Assembly: GCA_021824175.1 (NCBI GenBank) | Contig: JAKALP010000011.1 | Coordinates: 1 to 64,000 of the forward strand | DNA length: 64,000 bases | Source of the DNA: Deltaproteobacteria bacterium | GTDB lineage: Bacteria > Desulfobacterota > Desulfobacteria > Desulfobacterales > Desulfosarcinaceae | Direction of reading: 5' to 3' | Position numbers and translations under genes: made by a program | Shown: piece by piece, positions 39,067 to 49,238 of the stretch | How positions within the stretch are numbered: the stretch's first letter is position 1 | Layout: every line of letters starts with the position of its first letter | The notes under the pieces: model-generated | Seen by the model: only the letters and a program-made list of their open reading frames with translations | What the model was told of the DNA's origin: nothing | Database searches by the model: none

Positions 39067-41040
39067 TCACCACGTTTTTTGCTCGTCATCCTGGACCTGC
39101 CGCGCGCTTTCCCTGAGTTTGTCCTCGGCTACAATGGGACGCCGCTGCTCCTTGATTTGGGCGTAAGCGAACTCCTTTTCCACCCGTACCACCTCCAACG
39201 TGGCCATGACCACGGGCTCGGGCTGAAACTGTTTGCCTTTGTATTCCACAGGCGGCTTCTCCTCCACCACATCAAATAAGGCACCGGTCACCACACCCTG
39301 ATTAGCGCCGATATTCATCAGGACCTGGGCGCCGGTCACTTCGACCACAAAGGCCTGCAACGGATGGTGGGCGATAATGGTGGTCAAAATCTCACGATTG
39401 AGCCAGTGCAGATCCTTCTGGAGGGTCACCGCGGACGCGAACTGCCGCTGGATCTCCTGGGGTGCGGCCTGCTGGGCGCGCATATCCGCCAGCTGGTATT
39501 TGAGCAGGGTGCCTTCGGACAGGTGAAACAAAGTCCCCTTACCCACTATGGTCGCACCGCAGGCCACGGCCAGCCGCTTGAGGGAATCGGTATTGGCAAG
39601 CTCCTTTTGGGTCAACCCCAGCTTTTCGATTACCATTTCCAGGATATAAGGCTCCATGACGCTCACCCGACCCGAGGTGTTGAGCTGATCGGCCAGGTTT
39701 AAGATCAATACCCTGGCAAAACCGTCCCTGGACGCGAGGCCACCGGTTTCCACAGGTTCCAAGAGGATGAGCATGGTGGCTTGGCTGCTCCAGGTGTCCT
39801 GGAGATTTTCCTTGGCGGTGCGAACGCCATCCTTGTAATTTTGCACGTAGCGGGTTACCTGGGCGTCCACTTCCCGCCGCTTTTCGGCATCCTTTTCCAG
39901 CAGAAGCATCTTTTGGGCATTGGCCGCCAGGGTGGTGGCAAAGGGGTCGCTGTGATTGATGGTCTGGGCCTTGTGGTACGACTCCAAGGCCTTATCCCAT
40001 TCGCCCTGACGCTCAAAGGTCATGCCTTTATTGGAGGTGGCCTCCACATAGTAAGGGTCCAAGGCAACGGCCTGGTCGTACATGCTCAGCGACTTTTGGT
40101 ACTCGCCACGGCCGGTGTAGATCCGACCCAATTGGTTATAGGCCATGGCGCGATGGCTGGGATTGCCACCCGCCTTATCAATGGCTTTGCGATATTCGGC
40201 TTCCGCCTCCTGGGGTTTATTCTGGCTGTAAAGCAAATCACCCCTGACCACATGGGTATAGGCGCGTTCGCCGGCTTTCTGCTCCACCTCCTTGGCCATG
40301 GACATGGCTTTTTCAGGTTGGCCCTGTCTGGCATACACCTGGGAAAGGCCTTCTTTGCCCACGATCTCCCCTTCGCCCTGATTGGTGGAAAGAGTATAAA
40401 AGGTCTTCTCGGCGGTTTTCAGGTCACCCTCTTTTAAGGCCGCGTACCCTTGGACGCTTTTGGCGCGGACATTGGCAGGGTCCTTTTTAACCACTTCCTG
40501 GCTCAGAACCTTGGCGATTTCGGGTTGCCGGTTCTGCAGCTTACGCTCCGCCAAAGCAATCAGAAGATTCTCGGTGGTCTTGCCGCCGCCCTGAATATAA
40601 TCGAGCAATGTCAAATCCGGCCCCACGATGCACACGGTGGGAAGTACCAGCCGCGCGGCATAAAGATCGGACACCGCGCCGCTGTCCACTAAAATGGAGA
40701 AATTGAGTTTGCTTTGAGCCAGGAAGCCATTGACCTTGTCAGCCGGCGCGCGGGTGATGCCCCAGACCACGAGATCGGCGTTTTTATACTTTTTGGCCAG
40801 ACCATCCAACGACAGCAACCCTTCTTGACTGGATTTGGAATCCACGTCAAAGAAGTAAAGGATCAGCATGGGTTGTTCTTTCATGCCGGCCAGTTCGAAC
40901 GTTTTTCCCTTAGGGTCCTTCAGAGTGAACAAAGGCGCGGGTTGACCGGCCTTGAGCTGTCCGTATCCATTGCCGCTGATGGCCAGCACGAGAACGACCA
41001 TAACGACCGCAATGCTGATCCAGCGAGTCAAGGACTGCAT
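39067..41040 (-). CDS. Redoxin-like / TPR / CsgG-like exported protein
   Basis: 657 residues. An N-terminal signal or anchor (about 8-25) leads into a TlpA/AhpC-like redoxin domain (about 27-160: PAPLFTLKDPKGKTFEL, MLILYFFDVDSKS). The redox Cys normally following the WxxC site is absent (YFFDVDSKSS), so it should not be redox-active. TPRs occupy about 170-380. Residues about 395-530 fit a CsgG/TolB-like domain (RVSVMEPYILEMVIEKLGL, ATIVGKGTLF), and a small C-terminal beta domain follows. It is the last gene of the leftward PP2C-protease-kinase operon (41 bases after the kinase stop). It probably works at the periplasmic side of the signalling complex. Confidence 0.7.
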   Translation of the reverse strand: MQSLTRWISIAVVMVVLVLAISGNGYGQLKAGQPAPLFTLKDPKGKTFELAGMKEQPMLILYFFDVDSKSSQEGLLSLDGLAKKYKNADLVVWGITRAPADKVNGFLAQSKLNFSILVDSGAVSDLYAARLVLPTVCIVGPDLTLLDYIQGGGKTTENLLIALAERKLQNRQPEIAKVLSQEVVKKDPANVRAKSVQGYAALKEGDLKTAEKTFYTLSTNQGEGEIVGKEGLSQVYARQGQPEKAMSMAKEVEQKAGERAYTHVVRGDLLYSQNKPQEAEAEYRKAIDKAGGNPSHRAMAYNQLGRIYTGRGEYQKSLSMYDQAVALDPYYVEATSNKGMTFERQGEWDKALESYHKAQTINHSDPFATTLAANAQKMLLLEKDAEKRREVDAQVTRYVQNYKDGVRTAKENLQDTWSSQATMLILLEPVETGGLASRDGFARVLILNLADQLNTSGRVSVMEPYILEMVIEKLGLTQKELANTDSLKRLAVACGATIVGKGTLFHLSEGTLLKYQLADMRAQQAAPQEIQRQFASAVTLQKDLHWLNREILTTIIAHHPLQAFVVEVTGAQVLMNIGANQGVVTGALFDVVEEKPPVEYKGKQFQPEPVVMATLEVVRVEKEFAYAQIKEQRRPIVAEDKLRESARQVQDDEQKTW

Positions 41041-41081
41041 GGCGACCTCCTTATTTGCGGAGTAATAAAATTATCTATAGT

Positions 41082-42347
41082 CTATTCGATGCGCCGCATG
41101 GCAACGCTGACCGGCGTTTCTCCCGCCTCCAGTTCGACTTGTGCTTCCCACTCCAGATAACCGGTAAGATTCAACCGCAATTCATATTTGCCCAGGGGCA
41201 AGGGCACCACCAAAGGCGTAAGTCCTTTAAGACCGTTATTCACAAAAACTTTAGCACCTTGGGGTTCGCTGCTGATCTTCAGCAGCGCCAACTGTTCCGG
41301 AGTCACTTGCGTTACGGGGTGGGTGGCTGTGTTGTCCGTCGCGGCCGCGCCGCCGGCATTGTCTGGCGCCGGAGTGGCTTCCGTAGCCGTCCCTCCGGCC
41401 GTGTGGCTGGCCGGACGCGGCCAGAAGAGGTAACCACCGGTCAAGGCAATGACGATCAAAACCAGCGTCGCCACGGCCAGGACGATCTTCTTGTTTGGCG
41501 CCCGGCCGATCGCTTTAACGGTTTTGTCTTCAACCGCGGGAAGAATGGAAGTCAGAGCCTCGGCCATCTCGCGGCCGGTTTGAAATCGAGCTTCGGGTTG
41601 CTTGGCTAAACTCTTGAGGATCAGATCGGAAAGCATTTTGGGAATAAACGGATCGGCCGTGGCTGGGGATTCGGGATTATCATTGGTGATGGCCCTGAAA
41701 ATGGCGGCGATATTGCTGCCCGCAAATGGCCGGCGGCCCACCACGATCTCATAGAGAATGACTCCCAAGGAGAAGAGATCCGAGCGGCCGTCCACGCCCT
41801 GGCCCATAACCTGCTCAGGCGCCATGTAAACGGGCGTACCAAGAATTTCACCAGCCTGCGTCTGATGGCCGGCCCCGGTGTCTTCAATGCGCGCGATGCC
41901 GAAGTCGGTCAGCTTGACCTGCTTTTCTTCGGTAAAAATAATGTTGGAGGGTTTTATATCGCGGTGCACGATACCTTGCCGATGGGCATAGTCCAAGGTC
42001 AGAGCCACTTGTCGCGCAATATCGATACACATCGGCAACGGCAGCCGTTGCGAGCGTACGACGTCGTTGAAAGGCTCGCCCTTCAAATACTCCATGGCGA
42101 TGTAGATCGTGCCTTGATCTTCGCCCACGTCATAGATGGTGACGATGTTGGGGTGGGACAAGCGTCCGATGGCGCGGGCTTCCTTGAGGAAGCGGGCTAC
42201 GAATGCTTCGCTGGTGACCCGGTCCGGTCGAAGTACTTTTAATGCCACCATGCGATCGATCTGGGGGTCGTGGGCCTGGAAGACCACGCCCATGGTGCCT
42301 TTGCCCAACTCTTTGATGATGCGGTATCGGCCGTATTGAGCAGTCAT
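41082..42347 (-). CDS. Transmembrane Ser/Thr protein kinase with PEGA domain
   Basis: 421 residues. Eukaryotic-type kinase domain (about 5-270): GKGTMGVVF, Lys in ALKVL, catalytic HRDIKPSN, DFG motif (LTDFGIAR), GTPVYMAPEQV, DLFSLGVILYEIVVG. A transmembrane helix follows at about 290-312, then an Ala/Thr-rich linker and a C-terminal PEGA domain (ISSEPQGAKVFVNN...LPLGKYELRL) in the periplasm. The ATG at 42347 is right after the protease stop. With the PP2C phosphatase and the FHA protein across the divergent spacer it forms a phospho-threonine switch, the same set of roles as PpkA-PppA-Fha in type VI secretion. Confidence 0.92.
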   Translation of the reverse strand: MTAQYGRYRIIKELGKGTMGVVFQAHDPQIDRMVALKVLRPDRVTSEAFVARFLKEARAIGRLSHPNIVTIYDVGEDQGTIYIAMEYLKGEPFNDVVRSQRLPLPMCIDIARQVALTLDYAHRQGIVHRDIKPSNIIFTEEKQVKLTDFGIARIEDTGAGHQTQAGEILGTPVYMAPEQVMGQGVDGRSDLFSLGVILYEIVVGRRPFAGSNIAAIFRAITNDNPESPATADPFIPKMLSDLILKSLAKQPEARFQTGREMAEALTSILPAVEDKTVKAIGRAPNKKIVLAVATLVLIVIALTGGYLFWPRPASHTAGGTATEATPAPDNAGGAAATDNTATHPVTQVTPEQLALLKISSEPQGAKVFVNNGLKGLTPLVVPLPLGKYELRLNLTGYLEWEAQVELEAGETPVSVAMRRIE

Positions 42348-42352
42348 GGTCA

Positions 42353-43285
42353 CTATCTTCCCAAAAATTGCAGCACAGTATCAAAGGGTATGACAAATCC
42401 AATCATATTGGTGCCCCGAAAACGACCTTTGACCACTCCGGTCAGACGCCCGTGATCATCGAGAATAGGGCTGCCGCTGCTGCCCGGCTCAATGTGCAGG
42501 CGCACTTGCAAGAGCACGGTGCCCTCTACCCGTCGCGGCGGACCATCCAGCATCCCGCTTTGAATCTCAGCCATTTTGCCTTGGGCGCATGACAAGGCGA
42601 ACAATTTTTCTTTTTCACCGGTGAGATAGCGACCATGGTCCAGGGAAACCACCTGATCCAACCTGCCCTTCATCTGGATGAGGCACAAATCGAGGTCCGC
42701 ATCGAGCTTGATCACTCGGCCTTCTTTTTCATGGCCATTATGCAATCGCACGCTGACCGCGTGCCCCATCTTGAGGTCATGGGCGGTGGTCAGAATCAGG
42801 CCGCTGCGATCCAGGGCAAAACCGCTCACTTGAAGCGGTGCGCCGTTTCGGTCAGAGTAAATGCAGACAACGGCATTGAGCTGGTTGCGCACCTCATTGG
42901 GAACCACAGCCGTGACCACGGCTGCACCGCTATCCGGTATCTTCACATATCCATCCAGATACTCCCAGAAAGCGTTTAGCAGTGGGCTGTTCTCCCCCCG
43001 CAGGGGATCAACGATGATCCGGGTGGCCAATGGAGAATGGGCTTTCAGCGAAATGAGCCAATGCTGGTTCTGGGTCTCGGCATCCAGCTGTACCTGCATG
43101 CCCTCTTGGGTGGCTCGGGACAGCTCAAATCCATTGTTTTCCAACCAAGGCCGGATAACCTCTTCAGTCTCAAAGATCGGCATGGAGAAGATGCGCTCGT
43201 GGTTTTCGGTGCCGGCAACGGCCGGAGAAACCAGCAGCACCAAATAATAGAGGATTGCCACGCAGCATGCGCCAACGAATTTCAT
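42353..43285 (-). CDS. Secreted trypsin-like serine protease
   Basis: 310 residues with signal peptide (about 1-24). A N-terminal ~110-residue region of unknown type precedes a chymotrypsin-fold domain. The triad is readable: His169 (TTAHDL), Asp199 (DADLDLCL), Ser270 (EPGSSGSPIL). No PDZ domain. Overlaps the PP2C stop by ATGA and is directly followed by the kinase, so all are coupled. The sandwiching between phosphatase and kinase suggests a periplasmic partner of the signalling system, maybe processing an envelope target. The substrate is unknown. Confidence 0.88.
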   Translation of the reverse strand: MKFVGACCVAILYYLVLLVSPAVAGTENHERIFSMPIFETEEVIRPWLENNGFELSRATQEGMQVQLDAETQNQHWLISLKAHSPLATRIIVDPLRGENSPLLNAFWEYLDGYVKIPDSGAAVVTAVVPNEVRNQLNAVVCIYSDRNGAPLQVSGFALDRSGLILTTAHDLKMGHAVSVRLHNGHEKEGRVIKLDADLDLCLIQMKGRLDQVVSLDHGRYLTGEKEKLFALSCAQGKMAEIQSGMLDGPPRRVEGTVLLQVRLHIEPGSSGSPILDDHGRLTGVVKGRFRGTNMIGFVIPFDTVLQFLGR

Positions 43286-44010
43286 GTCACCTTGGCCAAC
43301 ACAACGGTCACATTGTCCTTGCCGCCTGCTTCATTGGCCAGCGCGATGAGATGTTCCGCCTTGAAGACCAGATCCCCATTGCCTTCTAACACGCGGATAA
43401 TATCATCGTCTTCCACCAAATCGGTCAAGCCGTCCGAGCAAAGCAAAAACAGATCGCCATTAAAAATGGGACCGCGCAAGGTGTCCAGGGCCGGCGAAGG
43501 CCGGACGCCCACGGCTCTTAGAATAATGTTGCGCATCCGGTGGGATCGGGCTTGTTCAGCCGTGATCAGGCCTTGATCAAGCTGATCCTGCACCAGGGAA
43601 TGATCTTTGGTAAGTTGTTTAAGGTTGCCTTGGCGCAGTCGGTAGGTTCTGCTGTCTCCCATGTGGCCGATGACAAATCCCGTGGCGGTAAAGGCCAGCA
43701 ATTCCGCGGTGCACCCCATACCCTTATGTTCAGGGTGTTTGTCGGCATGGTCCAAGATCCGGTCATTGGCTTCCTGAAAGGTGGATTGCACCCGTTCAAC
43801 CAGGTCTTGTTCCGATGAAGTCGCCCCGCTTTGAAAAAGTTCGACCGCGGTTTGGGCGAATATCTGACTGGCCATTTCACCGGCCGCCGCGCCGCCCATG
43901 CCATCCGCCACCAGGCAGTAACCCACCTCGGGATTGATCATGAAGGCATCTTCATTATTGGAACGTATGCGTCCTACATCGGTCAAGCCGATGAATTCAA
44001 TTTTATGCAT
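43282..44010 (-). CDS. PP2C-type Ser/Thr phosphatase
   Basis: 242 residues, the minimal bacterial PP2C (Stp1/PppA type). Metal/active-site motifs: RSNNEDAF, VADGMGGAAAGE, GHMGDSRTYRL, LFLLCSDGLTDLVEDDDI, and GGKDNVTVVL near the end. It dephosphorylates Ser/Thr targets of the kinase two genes downstream. It is the first gene of the leftward operon, starting in the divergent spacer opposite the deacetylase. ATGA overlap with the protease. Confidence 0.95.
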   Translation of the reverse strand: MHKIEFIGLTDVGRIRSNNEDAFMINPEVGYCLVADGMGGAAAGEMASQIFAQTAVELFQSGATSSEQDLVERVQSTFQEANDRILDHADKHPEHKGMGCTAELLAFTATGFVIGHMGDSRTYRLRQGNLKQLTKDHSLVQDQLDQGLITAEQARSHRMRNIILRAVGVRPSPALDTLRGPIFNGDLFLLCSDGLTDLVEDDDIIRVLEGNGDLVFKAEHLIALANEAGGKDNVTVVLAKVT

Positions 44011-44379
44011 AATTCAATGTCGTCAGCATGAAGTTGGTAAGATCAAACGCTTCGTAAGGCATTTGGGCTATTGGCTCACTGGCAACTGTCATTGATGAAT
44101 TTTTTTACTATGATATCCGATTATTGTCAATATTGTTCCCAATGCGCCGCGCAAATCACCTCCCTGAACTTACGGCCAACCCGCCTGACCGCCCCGCCGT
44201 GGCGATGCGCACCACCCATGCCGCAAGCCACTCCTCCTCTTTGCGCCGCGGTTCCCGGCAGGTCTTAATGATATCGGCCTAAAGTGATGATCGCTGAAGC
44301 CGACATTACAAGAAGATTGCGCCCCAAGAGGGGCTGTGGTATTCATTGATTAACAAACTTCTGATTTAATAGCATTATT
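44011..44379. other. Divergent intergenic region of the kinase/sheath locus
   Basis: 369 bases that must hold the promoters for the two divergent gene sets. The part near 44140-44260 is GC-rich, the flanks A/T-rich. No repeat, hairpin or plausible small gene was identified. A short frame at 44071 has unusual composition and no family features. Confidence 0.5.
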
Positions 44380-45384
44380 ATGAAAATTAAGCCCATATTC
44401 CCCCGCTTCCCCAACGCGATATTGGCCGCGGCGGCATGCATTTTAATGCTCGCTGGCTGGGCAGCGGCTTCCGATCCCCCATCGATGTTTCGTTCGGACG
44501 AATATGTGGTGTACAAAATGGGTGTTGAAGACACGCCGTCCACCATGGCTCGAGATTTTCTCGGCGCGGCGGAGCTCGGTTGGCGCATTGAGGAGGCAAA
44601 CACGCCTAAGGATTTGCGGCCGGGCCAATATGTCGTAATCCCCCTCAAAGCCAATAACAAAGCGGGAATTTTATACAACGGAGTCCAGCAGGTCCCTATT
44701 TTATGCTATCACCGCTTCGGCGCGGACGGCGATTCCCCCCTGAGCATTCCCGGCGACATTTTTGAGCAGCAAATGAGCTATCTCAAAGAGAATGGTTTTA
44801 CGGTCATCACGCCGGAACAGTTGTCGGAATTTTTGGAATACCGCGCGCCCCTGCCCAAGAAATCGGTGTTGATCACCGTGGATGATGGCTACAGTTCGTT
44901 CTTCAGCGTAGCCTTTCCGATCCTGAAAAAGTATGGTTTTTCGGCCACGATCTTCGTTTACGTCAATTATATCGGAGTATCCAGCAAAGCCCTGAGCTGG
45001 GACCAATTGCGAACATTAAAGGCCGAAGGGGTCACTATAGGCTCCCACACCATCATGCACTCTGATCTGTCGAAACAGGGGCAAGGGGAAAGCGATCAGG
45101 CTTACTTAAAGCGACTGGAGCATGAGATCGTGGATTCTAAAAAGAAGATTGACGCCCGGCTCGAACAGGACACCCTGTATTTTGCTTATCCATTTGGCCG
45201 AGCCAACGATAAAGCCATGGCCGTGACCCAAAAGGCGGGCTACAAGCTGGCCATGACCGTCCATCACGGCAGCAATCCATTTTACGCCAATGCCTTTGCA
45301 TTGCAGCGGGACCAAGTACTTCAAAGGGATTTGATTTCATTCCAGACCCATCTCAAAACCTTTCAGGCGATGCCGTTGAGGTGA
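44380..45384 (+). CDS. Polysaccharide deacetylase (NodB, CE4) with LysM-like N-terminus
   Basis: 334 residues with a signal peptide (about 10-30). Residues 40-90 resemble a LysM module (YVVYKMGVEDTPSTMARDF...LRPGQYVVIPL), which binds glycan. The CE4 domain follows: VPILCYHRFG, the metal Asp pair in ITVDDGYSS, ATIFVYVNY, SHTIMHSDL (His-x4-His) and YFAYPFGRAND. It is expected to deacetylate peptidoglycan or a related glycan in the periplasm. First gene of the rightward set; only 4 bases separate it from the next gene. In a sheath-like system a wall-modifying enzyme could clear a path through the wall. Confidence 0.9.
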   Translation: MKIKPIFPRFPNAILAAAACILMLAGWAAASDPPSMFRSDEYVVYKMGVEDTPSTMARDFLGAAELGWRIEEANTPKDLRPGQYVVIPLKANNKAGILYNGVQQVPILCYHRFGADGDSPLSIPGDIFEQQMSYLKENGFTVITPEQLSEFLEYRAPLPKKSVLITVDDGYSSFFSVAFPILKKYGFSATIFVYVNYIGVSSKALSWDQLRTLKAEGVTIGSHTIMHSDLSKQGQGESDQAYLKRLEHEIVDSKKKIDARLEQDTLYFAYPFGRANDKAMAVTQKAGYKLAMTVHHGSNPFYANAFALQRDQVLQRDLISFQTHLKTFQAMPLR

Positions 45385-45388
45385 CCGC

Positions 45389-46546
45389 ATGCCAAAGATC
45401 ACAGTTTGTATTGGTTTCATTTTGCTGATCTTGGGGTGCATCGGCGCTGCCTCCGGCGTTGCTTGGGCGGAGCAGACCCAAAGCCGGCTGTGTACCCAAT
45501 TCCTGAGCAACGCCCGAAGCCTTGAAGAGCGGGGCGATTTCCCCGCGGCCCTGGAGAAGTATAAAATCGCGCTCACGGTCGACCCTTCCAGTAGCGCGGC
45601 TGAGAAAGGCCGGGCGCGGGTAAGCCGGATATTGTCTCAATCAGCGGATCATTACTACCAGTTGGGATGGCAGTACTACGAGCAAGGCAAATACGGTTTG
45701 ACCCTGAATGCTTTCTTGACCGCATTGAAATACCAACCGGACAACCCGCAGGCTTCCAAAATCCTGATATCCAGACCACTGCCCGACGGGTACGTCGACA
45801 TTGTGCATGTCATGCAGCCTGGTGAAACGCTCTCCACCATTGCCAAGGAATATTATGGGGATTACAAAAAATTTGATGTGCTCGCCCATTATAATCATAT
45901 CGATGATGCCGCCATGGTGCCAGTGGGCCAGCAAATCAGCGTGCCACAACTCTCCAGCCTGTCGCTTAGCCTGCTCATCGGCAAAGAAATTCCTTGGCCA
46001 TTGGAAGCTGCCGCCGTGGCCCAGGCCTCATGGCCGACAGAAGAGAAGCAGCGCCTTTCAGGACCCGTAACTGGGAGTCAAGACGCGGCTGATGAGCAGA
46101 TATTGGCCTATCGCAAGAGCGGCATCGATTTGTTTAAGCAGGGCAAATATACCGATGCGGTTTTTGAACTCAATAAAGTCGTTCAGGCAGCTCCCAAAGA
46201 CGCCTTGGCCCGCAACTACCTGGCCAAGGCTTATTATCAACAAGCCATGGCGGATGAAAACAACGGCAATTATCTGAAGGCCAATAAGAGTTATGAAGCC
46301 GCCCTGCGATGTGATCCGGAGTGTACCCAATGCGCTGAAAATGCCAAGCGCAGCATGGACAGATTCAAAGAGACCCACTACACTAAGGGCAATGTCCATT
46401 TCACCAAGGGAGAGCTGGCCGATGCCATGATGGAGTGGCAGATGGTGTATGATGCTGATCCCAAGTACCAAGAGGTGGAGCAAAACTTGACCAAGGCCAA
46501 ATCTCTGCTTGAAAAAATGGGAAAAATCAAGAACACAGAGGAGTAA
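45389..46546 (+). CDS. Exported TPR/LysM protein
   Basis: 385 residues. Signal peptide (about 5-27, ending VAWA-EQ). TPR-like helices at 35-125, a LysM module at about 133-180 (VHVMQPGETLSTIAKEYYG), and further TPRs from about 240 to 370 (IDLFKQGKYTDAVFELNKVV). A periplasmic glycan-bound scaffold is likely. It begins four bases after the deacetylase stop, so they are coupled; a 126-base gap separates it from the FHA gene. Confidence 0.88.
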   Translation: MPKITVCIGFILLILGCIGAASGVAWAEQTQSRLCTQFLSNARSLEERGDFPAALEKYKIALTVDPSSSAAEKGRARVSRILSQSADHYYQLGWQYYEQGKYGLTLNAFLTALKYQPDNPQASKILISRPLPDGYVDIVHVMQPGETLSTIAKEYYGDYKKFDVLAHYNHIDDAAMVPVGQQISVPQLSSLSLSLLIGKEIPWPLEAAAVAQASWPTEEKQRLSGPVTGSQDAADEQILAYRKSGIDLFKQGKYTDAVFELNKVVQAAPKDALARNYLAKAYYQQAMADENNGNYLKANKSYEAALRCDPECTQCAENAKRSMDRFKETHYTKGNVHFTKGELADAMMEWQMVYDADPKYQEVEQNLTKAKSLLEKMGKIKNTEE

Positions 46547-46672
46547 CGGCAGACCGACAATCGGGTGGGACCTGCCGGATCTCATCCTGCCCGCTGAACT
46601 GATGCGTCCATGCGCCCACTGCACTGTGCGCGGATTGGATGTGTCCTCAACCCATCAAAGGTTCAATGCCCC

Positions 46673-47620
46673 ATGACCGCTACGCCATTTATCTCCGTCC
46701 AACTGGTTCACCTCCAAGGGCCTTCCAAAGGCGAGATCCAGGATTTGGGTGACAGTGAAATCCGCATCGGCCGGCATCCCGACTGCCAGGTGAACTTTCC
46801 CAAAGATTTGACCACCCTTTCCAGAGTGCACGCCCGGATTATACGGGAAGGCAATCGCTTCAAACTGATTGACCAGAGCACCAACGGCACCTTTGTCAAT
46901 GGCCAGCGGGTGACGGAGGCCTATCTTAAAGATGGAGATGTATTGATGTTCTCCGATGGCGGGCCCAAGGTGAGCTTTCTGACCCAAACCAGCACAGCGG
47001 CGCCTGTTTCATCTAAACCGGCGCCGCCCACTGCCCGACCCGAACCCGCTGCCTCGCCGGCATTTCAGGCCCGCGCAACGACCGGCCTCGGATTTGGCGC
47101 CCCGCCGCCCACGCCCAAGCCGGCCCCAATGACGCCGCCGTCCCATGCCGCCACTCAGCCGATTTCCAGGCCAGTGCCGCCGGCGCCCGAAACCGTCAAA
47201 GCGCCCCTGGCCATTCAGTATGGGCCGGCCCTGAAATCGTTTCAAACCCTGCCCATTGTCATTGGCAGCGCGCCGGGCTGCGATTTCATCATCAGCCACC
47301 CCAATGTGGGGGATCACCACGCCCAAATCTTTTTTGCCGCCAATCAATATTGGATCAAAGATTTGACCGGCCGGGGCACCATCCTGATCAACAGCCAGCC
47401 CATCCCCGGCCAAGCAGCCCTGACTCCGGATATGCAGTTGGCCCTGAGCGACCGTGGCCCGAAATTCCGCTTTATGGCCGGCGGCCGGCTGGCGGAAATT
47501 GACGAGCCGCTGCCGGCCACACCCGCACCGTCTGCTCCGCCGCAAGCGGACCGAGCCTCTAAGGGGCCGGGCGCGACCGACTCTAAAAAAGGGAACTTCT
47601 TCAAGAAATTCTTTTCATAG
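46673..47620 (+). CDS. Double-FHA-domain protein
   Basis: 315 residues, no signal. FHA domain 1 (about 8-105) has the complete phosphothreonine-binding set: IRIGRHPDCQV, LSRVHARI, STNGTFVNG. A Pro/Ala-rich linker (about 115-190) follows. A second FHA domain (about 195-275) has lost key residues: IGSAPGCDF instead of IGR, and VGDHHAQI instead of S-x-x-H, so it probably does not bind phosphate. The tail ends basic and aromatic (KKGNFFKKFFS). FHA proteins read the phosphothreonines made by the kinase across the spacer. The 21-residue longer start is less likely. It is 46 bases upstream of the TssB-TssC-like gene. Confidence 0.9.
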   Translation: MTATPFISVQLVHLQGPSKGEIQDLGDSEIRIGRHPDCQVNFPKDLTTLSRVHARIIREGNRFKLIDQSTNGTFVNGQRVTEAYLKDGDVLMFSDGGPKVSFLTQTSTAAPVSSKPAPPTARPEPAASPAFQARATTGLGFGAPPPTPKPAPMTPPSHAATQPISRPVPPAPETVKAPLAIQYGPALKSFQTLPIVIGSAPGCDFIISHPNVGDHHAQIFFAANQYWIKDLTGRGTILINSQPIPGQAALTPDMQLALSDRGPKFRFMAGGRLAEIDEPLPATPAPSAPPQADRASKGPGATDSKKGNFFKKFFS

Positions 47621-47666
47621 TACTCCATAAGATATCTTCGACTTTCAACCCTTCCTGGAGTCTGTC

Positions 47667-49238
47667 ATGCCGATTCAGCCGCCACCCTTCAAAATACTTT
47701 GCCTGGCGCCCTTTCATCCCGACCCTGAACGGATCTGGCAAGGTCCGCCGCTGCCGGTGGATCGCTTCAACATCGATGAGGTGATCGATCAATTGCAGAT
47801 CCGCTTTTTTCTTCCATTGGATCAGCACCTGTGCCCGGCGGGTGGCATCGCGCTTCGCTTCGATACTCTCAAGTCCATGCATCCCGATGGACTGGCCAAA
47901 TCCAACGCCTACCTAAGCCGGCTGCTGCAATTGAAAGAGTATTTGAAAAATGCCCGCCGCCAAGGGGTGGGTGCGGCGCGCATCCGCGAAGAGCTGCGGC
48001 AATGGCCCGATATGCCTCCCATCGCCATCTTGGAAGATCGCCCCGCCGGCAAAGCCGCCGCGGCGGCCGGCGCCCTGGATAATCTTCTGAGCATGGTGGA
48101 TCTGCCGGGCAGTCCATCAACGCCCGCCGAAGCAATACGAGATGAGGTTCACCAAATCGATGTCATTGTCCAGCAAATCCTGGACACCGTGTTTCGCAAC
48201 CCCGGCTTCAGCCAGATGGAGCGCGCCTGGGGCGGTCTGCGATTGCTGCTGCAGCAAAGTACTTCTCAGGCGGATAGCCGAGTTTCCGCGGCTGCGATGC
48301 AGGCCGATTCCATGGAGCAGTCTCTGGAGTCCCTCACCGCCCATGTCATCAATGATCTGCCCAATGTCGTGCTGTTAGATCTGCCCTTTGACCACAGCCC
48401 CTTGGCCATGCAGCGCTTGAGCGCCGCGGCCCAATGGGCCGCCACCTTGATGGTGCCGATGGTGGCCTGGGTTCCGGTTGATTTCTTCCAGATCCAGTCG
48501 TGGCGGCAGCTCACGACCCTGCCCTTTTTGCCCCATCATTTAGACACGCCGCTGTATGCCAAGTTTTCCAAGCTCAAAGCCTCTGATGAAGGGCAGTGGC
48601 TCTGTCTGACATGCAACCGGATATTAGCCCGCTTCCCCTATGGCAAAGATAACCCACCGCGCCAAGTCGTCTTTAAAGAAAATGAAAAACCTTGGATCTC
48701 CCCGGTTTGGGCGCTGGGTGCGCTTATCACCCAAAGCGCGGAACAAACCGGGTGGCCGACTCGCTTCACTGATATCCAGCAATTCCAGCTTCTAAATCTG
48801 GCTTTGCATACACCAGATGATTCGGACCCCGCCGCCACCGAAGTACTTCTGGCCCGCGACCGGCTGGATCAGCTGTCACGCGCCGGGTTCACGCCCCTGT
48901 CTTCTGAACAGGGGCGCGATTTAGCCTTTTGCCCCAAAGCGGTCACCATCAACGGCAATTCTTTGGCGTTTCAACTGCTGCTCAGCCTGACTACCCAGTT
49001 TATATTATGGTGCAAAGATCATCTGCCAGCGCAGCTCGGCCCCGATGAGTTGCGACATCAACTGGAAGAAGCTCTGAGGCAGTTCAGCGCCCGGAGCAAG
49101 CCCCCGGGATTTGAAAAGATTGCGGTGAGCACCGATGTTGCCAACCCCGAGGGAAGAATTCCGGTACACTTTGTCTTAACACCGCATCCATCCGTGCTGC
49201 CTGGCAATCAGGTGATTGAATTGCGGATGGACTGGTAA
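47667..49238 (+). CDS. TssB-TssC-like fused contractile sheath protein
   Basis: 523 residues from an ATG with GGAG nine bases upstream. Residues about 5-110 look like TssB/VipA: PFKILCLAPFHPDPERIW, the FNIDEVIDQLQIRFFL segment, LRFDTLKSMHPDGLAKSNAY and LLQLKEYL. From about 165 it reads like TssC/VipB: VQQILDTVFRNPGFSQMERA WGGLR; then a shortened core with PMVAWVPVDFF; ILARFPYG; VWALGALITQS; EVLLARDRLDQLSRAGFTPL; and a terminal domain with FVLTPH. In ordinary type VI systems these are two genes (about 165 and 500 residues) forming the contractile sheath. The fusion is compact and I know of no described example. No other sheath-system gene is in the window. Its tail overlaps the next gene, convergent, by 31 bases. 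Confidence 0.78.
   Translation: MPIQPPPFKILCLAPFHPDPERIWQGPPLPVDRFNIDEVIDQLQIRFFLPLDQHLCPAGGIALRFDTLKSMHPDGLAKSNAYLSRLLQLKEYLKNARRQGVGAARIREELRQWPDMPPIAILEDRPAGKAAAAAGALDNLLSMVDLPGSPSTPAEAIRDEVHQIDVIVQQILDTVFRNPGFSQMERAWGGLRLLLQQSTSQADSRVSAAAMQADSMEQSLESLTAHVINDLPNVVLLDLPFDHSPLAMQRLSAAAQWAATLMVPMVAWVPVDFFQIQSWRQLTTLPFLPHHLDTPLYAKFSKLKASDEGQWLCLTCNRILARFPYGKDNPPRQVVFKENEKPWISPVWALGALITQSAEQTGWPTRFTDIQQFQLLNLALHTPDDSDPAATEVLLARDRLDQLSRAGFTPLSSEQGRDLAFCPKAVTINGNSLAFQLLLSLTTQFILWCKDHLPAQLGPDELRHQLEEALRQFSARSKPPGFEKIAVSTDVANPEGRIPVHFVLTPHPSVLPGNQVIELRMDW

What the first reader, a model, noticed from the sequence alone, without database searches (positions are those of the whole stretch)
39067..49238. 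Possible minimal sheath system: TssB-TssC fusion with kinase, phosphatase, FHA and wall enzymes
Seen: two divergent gene sets. Leftward are PP2C, trypsin-like protease, PEGA kinase and redoxin/TPR protein, with ATGA overlaps or short spacers. Rightward are NodB deacetylase, LysM/TPR protein, double-FHA protein and a 523-residue TssB-TssC-like protein. Known: in type VI secretion the PpkA kinase, PppA phosphatase and Fha protein control assembly of the TssBC sheath. Not seen: TssA, E, F, G, J, K, L, M, Hcp, VgrG or ClpV anywhere in the window. Inference: a reduced or new phospho-controlled contractile or sheath-like device, or a sheath relative used only for signalling/scaffolding.
Basis: partly seen in the sequence, partly recalled or inferred. 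Interest (0 to 1): 0.85.

Follow-up and report, generated by a model that had tools for sequence, protein, structure and literature searches.

The report
Fused sheath paralogue with T6SS phospho-module
A desulfobacterial gene fuses the two sheath proteins of a bacterial harpoon (the type VI secretion system) into one shortened protein and sits beside a kinase-phosphatase-FHA control set; relatives show that both belong to ordinary harpoons, probably as an undescribed accessory part rather than a separate minimal device.

Summary
The genes are real and correctly placed. The 523-residue product is a true TssB-TssC fusion: Pfam VipA plus VipB, profile alignment to both, and a predicted fold whose nine significant Foldseek matches are all T6SS sheaths. 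The same genome has a complete ordinary T6SS with separate tssB and tssC on another contig, and in several relatives the window's genes lie inside or beside ordinary T6SS clusters: the fusion between clpV and vgrG, or next to tssJ; the PP2C-protease-kinase-redoxin/TPR operon and FHA gene beside a full cluster. The fusion is within 80 kb of canonical tssC in 9 of 28 genomes (about 1 expected). So this is a T6SS threonine-phosphorylation arm plus a fused sheath paralogue that usually coexists with the real sheath. The FHA gene is directly upstream of the fusion in 23 of 32 loci. The fusion lacks the TssB N-terminal arm that ties sheath rings together but keeps a gp25-like C-terminal domain. A T6SS-cluster protein with a repeated threonine-motif tail co-occurs with the FHA protein and is a candidate phospho-ligand. 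Best guess: a phospho-recruited end-ring or adaptor subunit of the sheath; that role is inferred, not shown.

The parts
47667..49238 (+). TssB-TssC fusion, 523 aa; TssB part ~5-112, TssC core ~154-420, gp25-like C-terminal domain ~432-523
   Evidence: Pfam VipA 5e-7 and VipB 6.7e-32; hhalign 5-96 = TssB 29-126 (E 5.5e-14) and 154-480 = TssC 66-441 (E 1.7e-32); Foldseek: 9 of 9 hits with E<=0.001 are T6SS sheath; C-terminal domain Z 9.5 to TssE, 9.1 to T4 gp25
46610..47620 (+). double-FHA protein (probable start 46673); FHA-1 canonical, FHA-2 degenerate; directly upstream of the fusion
   Evidence: Pfam FHA 2e-30; TIGR03354 T6SS TagH 5.3e-23 but under cut-off; adjacent to the fusion in 23 of 32 loci
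45389..46546 (+). LysM/TPR protein with an N-terminal hydrophobic segment (export inferred by eye)
   Evidence: Pfam LysM 1.3e-5, TPRs
44380..45384 (+). polysaccharide (PgaB-like) deacetylase with an N-terminal hydrophobic segment (export inferred by eye)
   Evidence: Pfam PF01522 9.2e-26; NCBIfam PgaB 4.8e-32, under cut-off
43282..44010 (-). PP2C phosphatase
   Evidence: Pfam 9.1e-17; NCBIfam NF033484 over cut-off
42353..43285 (-). trypsin/HtrA-like serine protease, export inferred by eye
   Evidence: Pfam Trypsin_2 3.5e-17; motifs present
41082..42353 (-). Ser/Thr kinase with C-terminal PEGA domain
   Evidence: Pfam Pkinase 1.2e-55, PEGA 4.6e-13
39067..41040 (-). redoxin-like/TPR protein with FlgT_C-like end; no CxxC
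   Evidence: Pfam; cysteines

Best explanation
The window holds the unlinked signalling arm of an ordinary T6SS plus a specialised, covalently fused sheath paralogue. Supported by genome context: these genes are T6SS accessories. Inferred mechanism: the PEGA kinase, reading the envelope with its PEGA domain and with the protease and redoxin/TPR proteins, phosphorylates threonines, plausibly those in the repeated [E/D/A/Q]-T-[V/I] motifs of the T6SS-cluster protein at C32:115804-118239; PP2C reverses this; FHA-1 of the FHA protein binds the phosphothreonine and brings or switches its neighbour, the fusion. The fusion is a sheath protomer in one chain that has lost the TssB N-terminal arm, one of the two strands tying each subunit to the ring nearer the baseplate, but keeps a TssC-like C-terminal domain and end. 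It therefore most likely forms a special ring at one sheath end, more likely the baseplate side because it often sits with VgrG/DUF2169/PAAR genes, that attaches by one arm only and gates sheath nucleation or contraction. The deacetylase and LysM/TPR proteins would prepare or sense the wall.
For: T6SS membership by context: fusion inside a complete T6SS cluster in G165 (WTSL-fusion-TssJ); between clpV and vgrG in G298 (Hcp end-TssE-F-G-ClpV-fusion-VgrG); 3-4 kb from tssC and divergent from tssA in G066; T6SS core or spike genes within 20 kb in 10 of 32 loci. Distance to canonical tssC <=80 kb in 9 of 28 genomes with both, 1.09 expected, P 6e-7 (G305 and G447 share a genus, so not fully independent). 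G012: PP2C-protease-kinase-redoxin/TPR and FHA adjoin a full T6SS, no fusion. The FHA protein is in 33 of 116 genomes, 29 of them with TssF (Fisher 5e-10). FHA and the tail protein co-occur in 27 genomes (33 and 30 of 116; within the 50 TssF+ genomes 26 both, P 7e-8). Tail motifs: 6, 4, 6, 4 in the C-terminal halves of four homologues against means of 0.1-0.3 (maximum 2-3) in 2000 shuffles. Arm loss: Pfam VipA matched from position 27 against 3 in canonical TssB; fusion residue 5 aligns to TssB 29; of 19 fusions tested, 17 could be scored and 13 of these leave at most 19 residues of open frame before the FKIL motif, against about 31 in canonical TssB. Arms: PMC5813253 and PMC5797969 (passages). 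C-terminal fold.
Against: No direct evidence for an end ring or for any contact between fusion, FHA and tail protein. In 22 of 32 loci no T6SS core or spike gene was seen in the flank at hand (often short). Of the 28 genomes with both genes, 16 (the window's included) have fusion and tssC on different contigs and 3 (G094, G118, G120) have them >1 Mb apart. Fusions occur without an FHA neighbour in G042, G066, G094, G125, G165 and G298, and the FHA gene occurs in 27 of 116 genomes without the fusion. The fold model is modest (mean pLDDT 65, 162 residues <50). The helix at ~136-142 resembles the ClpV-binding LLDEII motif of TssC (PMC4239648 passages), which would fit an ordinary recyclable subunit as well. 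Four scored fusions leave room for 25-46 residues before the core. The tail protein was not shown to be phosphorylated. All Fisher values ignore shared ancestry.
Confidence: 0.45

Rival explanations
1. The fusion is a soluble, non-polymerising sheath-like scaffold: FHA-linked, it senses or sequesters TssE, ClpV or free TssB/TssC and is never built into a sheath.
For: FHA gene adjacent in 23 of 32 loci; kept alongside canonical sheath genes; arm missing; other T6SS clusters carry fused paralogues in which the VipB_2 domain is not detected and which so seem unfit to polymerise.
Against: The C-terminal gp25-like domain and the terminal strand ending in W are conserved, more than a mere scaffold would need.
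Confidence: 0.27
2. The fusion is the sheath of a second, variant T6SS: either of the sheath-less cluster on C14 (TssE-F-G-K-L-M-VgrG) or of clusters such as G298.
For: C14 has no TssB, TssC, Hcp or ClpV homologue within 40 kb and G002 has a like cluster; G298, 99% complete, shows no canonical TssC.
Against: TssF of the C14 span and score occurs in six same-genus genomes without a strong fusion hit (G003, G005, G006, G007, G008, G010; G007 and G008 are 73% and 64% complete). Of 19 fusion genomes searched for TssF, 9 have one, 5 two and 5 none; in 7 of the 9 it lies close to a canonical TssC. The G298 contig starts inside hcp, so tssB/tssC may simply be unassembled.
Confidence: 0.1
3. A stand-alone phospho-controlled minimal sheath device unrelated to T6SS secretion.
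For: The module is unlinked to T6SS core genes in the window and in G118 and G120; six of 34 fusion genomes gave no canonical TssC.
Against: Embedding in, and linkage to, ordinary T6SS clusters; canonical TssC found in 28 of 34 fusion genomes; the six without are incomplete, of unknown completeness or cut at the T6SS (G298).
Confidence: 0.05
4. A decaying sheath relic carried along by linkage.
For: Broken copy in G462; patchy spread (8 of 116 relatives; 18 of 395 in the phylum).
Against: Full-length open frames at 31-46% identity to the window's, with 48 invariant columns among 13 sequences.
Confidence: 0.05

Closest known systems
T6SS sheath TssB/TssC (VipA/VipB)
   Same: Both domain families, order of folds, TssC core motifs, gp25-like C-terminal domain
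   Different: One chain; TssB N-terminal arm missing; ~25-30 residues lost between the possible ClpV-motif helix and the TssC core (by eye); in 28 of 34 genomes it exists beside canonical TssC
T6SS threonine phosphorylation pathway (PpkA-PppA-Fha)
   Same: Ser/Thr kinase, PP2C and FHA protein associated with T6SS; FHA hit to TagH model; Fha-phosphothreonine switch known for TssL in A. tumefaciens (PMC3953482, abstract)
   Different: PEGA kinase, trypsin-like protease, TPR/redoxin, deacetylase and LysM proteins as companions; the candidate phospho-ligand is an unnamed repeat-tail protein; FHA paired with a fused sheath paralogue
Single-chain sheaths of eCIS and phages (AFP, PVC, pyocin)
   Same: Single chain whose fold order matches along 4-506; VIA Z 11.8 (AFP) and 11.3 (PVC) nearly tie with the T6SS rows at 11.1-12.7
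   Different: Significant Foldseek hits are only T6SS sheaths; sequence families are T6SS; one scan found no relative in viral contigs
ImpD / TssC40-type extra TssC proteins
   Same: Additional TssC-family protein in a T6SS locus (impC and impD both COG3517 in PMC2660368, passages)
   Different: Those are TssC only as far as I recall; here TssB is fused on

Membership tests
T6SS sheath (TssB/TssC) | TssB and TssC domain homology | tested here: met
   Pfam over cut-off for both; hhalign; Foldseek
T6SS sheath (TssB/TssC) | TssB N-terminal arm and linker | tested here: not met
T6SS sheath (TssB/TssC) | TssC C-terminal gp25-like domain and end strand | tested here: met
   By fold only: match to TssE/gp25 over 87 residues; PF18945 itself not detected, profile match to the TssC end weak (E 5e-4)
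T6SS sheath (TssB/TssC) | ClpV-binding N-terminal helix of TssC | tested here: inconclusive
   conserved [VIL]-D-x-[IL]-L resembles LLDEII; second hhalign match not significant
T6SS sheath (TssB/TssC) | Polymerises and contracts | not testable with these tools
   -
T6SS sheath (TssB/TssC) | Encoded in a T6SS cluster | tested here: inconclusive
   met in relatives G165, G298, G066, near one in G117; not met in the window's own genome
T6SS threonine phosphorylation pathway | Kinase, PP2C and FHA genes associated with T6SS | tested here: met
   by context in G012, G026, G117 and FHA co-occurrence; not linked in the window's own genome
T6SS threonine phosphorylation pathway | FHA protein over the TagH/Fha family cut-off | tested here: not met
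   TIGR03354 82.5 bits against 120.25
T6SS threonine phosphorylation pathway | Threonine phosphorylation changes T6SS activity | not testable with these tools
   -
Minimal stand-alone contractile system | No complete T6SS in the genome | tested here: not met
   complete T6SS on C32
Phage/eCIS sheath | Closer to phage/eCIS than to T6SS sheath | tested here: not met
   Foldseek E<=0.001 only T6SS; Pfam T6SS families; VIA Z values nearly tie; one viral scan empty

The most novel reading that the evidence does not exclude
A family of one-armed, single-chain sheath subunits forms a dedicated, phospho-gated ring of the T6SS: recruited by an FHA protein bound to a multi-threonine tail, it controls where the sheath starts or whether contraction passes through, a control point that I know from no model T6SS.
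Probability: 0.3. Interest if true: 0.82.

Novelty: new variant of a known kind. Interest (0 to 1): 0.6.

Why it matters
Model T6SSs build the sheath from TssB and TssC chains; what caps or starts it and how phosphorylation reaches it are open points (the protein composition of the distal end is called unclear in PMC5813253). A natural subunit lacking the arm whose lengthening blocks contraction in V. cholerae (PMC5797969), encoded next to an FHA reader, gives a testable handle on both.

Tried and rejected
Stand-alone device: rejected on the genome's complete T6SS and on context in relatives. Fusion as the sheath of the sheath-less C14 cluster: disfavoured by co-occurrence. Phage origin: one scan of viral contigs with two short patterns gave 32 pattern matches and no relative. 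C-terminal domain as TssE rather than TssC: profile comparison undecided (TssC E 5e-4, TssE E 2.5e-3). Sigma-54-like promoter in the divergent gap 44011-44379: none by a simple scan. WTSL fold: model too poor to search (pLDDT 55). Literature: searches (listings seen) showed me no paper on a TssB-TssC fusion; open-licence library only. PMC2660368, PMC4239648, PMC5797969 and PMC5813253 seen as passages, PMC3953482 as abstract and outline.
Full report
OBSERVATION. The 523-residue product hits both T6SS sheath families over Pfam's cut-offs. phmmer against solved structures gives TssC chains (best 5.5e-17) and a weak TssB (0.013). Profile alignment maps residues 5-96 to TssB 29-126 and 154-480 to TssC 66-441. 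The AlphaFold model (mean pLDDT 65) matches only T6SS sheath chains at E<=0.001 (9 of 9); its last domain superposes on T6SS TssE (Z 9.5, 2.4 A, 87 residues) and T4 gp25 (Z 9.1). Phage and eCIS sheaths come close in Z (AFP 11.8, PVC 11.3, against 11.1-12.7 for most T6SS rows). It is a genuine fusion with a C-terminal domain of the kind that canonical TssC also has (PF18945).

THE GENOME HAS ORDINARY T6SS. PF05943 finds a canonical TssC at C32:104785-105684 (444.7 bits). The surrounding cluster holds TssB, A, E, G, ClpV-type AAA protein, Hcp, VgrG, M, L, K, J and F. A second cluster on C14 has TssE, G, K, L, M and VgrG and F, but within 40 kb no TssB, TssC, Hcp or ClpV homologue better than E 0.15. 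Hence 'no other tss genes' holds for the window only.

DISTRIBUTION. Strong fusion homologues (E<=1e-87) are in 8 of 116 genomes of the genus, family and order, own genome included, and in 18 of 395 sampled genomes of the phylum at E<=1e-60, own included (at most three candidates per genome were scored). A genome-collection scan gave 13 loci, whose record titles name Desulfobacteraceae, Desulfobacterales, Syntrophaceae, Deltaproteobacteria or just Proteobacteria. One scan of viral contigs gave none.

NEIGHBOURHOOD. Of 34 fusion loci scanned, 2 could not be resolved (contig-end or partial: G004, G126). In the other 32 the FHA gene lies on the same strand within 600 bases in 23; three of the nine misses (G119, G427, G217) have the fusion at the contig start. 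Within 20 kb: PP2C 19, PEGA kinase 17, WTSL (a 258-residue family without Pfam or NCBIfam match) 15, protease 11, redoxin/TPR 10, deacetylase 10, T6SS core or spike genes 10 (all; best-hit labels, flanks often short). All eight families of the window are within 20 kb in 3 of 32 (G000, G170, G375), in the last two with the deacetylase/LysM pair placed differently. FHA-fusion is the constant pair; the other genes come and go.

LINK TO T6SS. G165: complete cluster TssA-B-C-Hcp-E-F-G-ClpV-VgrG-DUF2169-pentapeptide-DUF3540-PAAR-WTSL, fusion, TssJ-K-L-M. G298: Hcp end, TssE-F-G-ClpV-fusion-VgrG. G066: fusion divergent from TssA. G117: the FHA gene is about 6 kb from the PAAR gene and the fusion about 15 kb from clpV of a T6SS cluster. 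G012: redoxin/TPR-kinase-protease-PP2C and FHA adjoin a full cluster without a fusion. G026: FHA-LysM/TPR-deacetylase and kinase-PP2C-kinase beside VgrG, DUF2169 and a TssC paralogue. FHA genes also lie 18-31 kb from tssC in G022, G028 and G029, genomes of one or two contigs, but ~400 kb away in single-contig G023. Among genomes with both, the fusion is within 80 kb of canonical tssC in 9 of 28 (expected 1.09, P 6e-7) and within 30 kb in 7 (expected 0.41, P 1e-7) (genomes with the genes on different contigs counted as far). Against: in 16 of the 28 (the window's genome too) they are on different contigs and in G094, G118 and G120 more than 1 Mb apart. Canonical TssC was not found in 6 of 34: G088, G116, G119, G122/G435, G123 and G298; G088 is 80% and G435 86% complete, no completeness is given for G116, G119 and G123, and G298 (99%) has its contig break inside hcp.

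CO-OCCURRENCE in 116 relatives: FHA with TssF 29 of 33 (P 5e-10); FHA with the tail protein 27 (33 and 30; P 2e-17; inside TssF+ genomes 26, P 7e-8); WTSL in 8 of 8 fusion genomes and 11 of 108 others (P 1e-7). The fusion itself is only loosely tied to FHA presence here (6 of 8, P 0.007) and to TssF (7 of 8, P 0.011). Relatedness is not corrected for.

MECHANISM (inferred). [quoted passage not shown] The fusion starts about where that linker ends. Of 19 fusions tested (34 loci at hand) 17 could be scored; 13 leave at most 19 residues for an arm and four leave 25-46. So most of those scored can attach downward by one arm only. With spike genes (VgrG, DUF2169, PAAR or their companions) near it in nine loci, I favour a baseplate-side ring, with a distal cap or a soluble scaffold as alternatives. 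The phospho-input is a reasonable guess: the cluster protein C32:115804-118239 carries six [E/D/A/Q]-T-[V/I] motifs in its C-terminal half, and three homologues 4-6, against means of 0.1-0.3 in shuffles; FHA-1 is canonical, FHA-2 degenerate.

VERDICT. Ordinary T6SS signalling arm plus an undescribed (by the searches) fused, one-armed sheath paralogue: a new variant of a known kind. Accessory status is well supported by context; the role is open.

Noticed in passing
G000 contig C14, 209.7-225.7 kb (L058): Second T6SS cluster TssE-F-G-K-L-M-VgrG-DUF2169/pentapeptide with no TssB, TssC, Hcp or ClpV found in 40 kb; G002 C1 has a like one, and TssF of similar score and span occurs in six other same-genus genomes. 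It presumably borrows the main system's sheath.
   Followed up: partly
L073:13631-14407 (WTSL) and homologues; G000 C43:47520-48296: 258-aa family without Pfam/NCBIfam match, single copy in 19 of 116 genomes, 17 of them TssF+, often in or next to T6SS spike-gene islands.
   Followed up: partly
L073:12755-13525 (KDL) and homologues: 256-aa family without Pfam/NCBIfam match, near the fusion in several loci and often beside WTSL.
   Followed up: no
G000 C32:115804-118239 (L006:5904-8339): 811-aa protein without Pfam match at the end of the T6SS cluster; tail with repeated [E/D/A/Q]-T-[V/I] motifs; in 30 of 116 genomes, 29 TssF+.
   Followed up: partly
L048:15766-17421, L050:16983-18557, L051:14828-16393, L053:3419-4990: Another fused TssB-TssC paralogue type in T6SS clusters, downstream of clpV, with no VipB_2 domain detected.
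   Followed up: partly
L049:1907-3655, L052:3918-5639: Full single-chain sheath fusions (VipA+VipB+VipB_2) directly after TssM in T6SS clusters.
   Followed up: no
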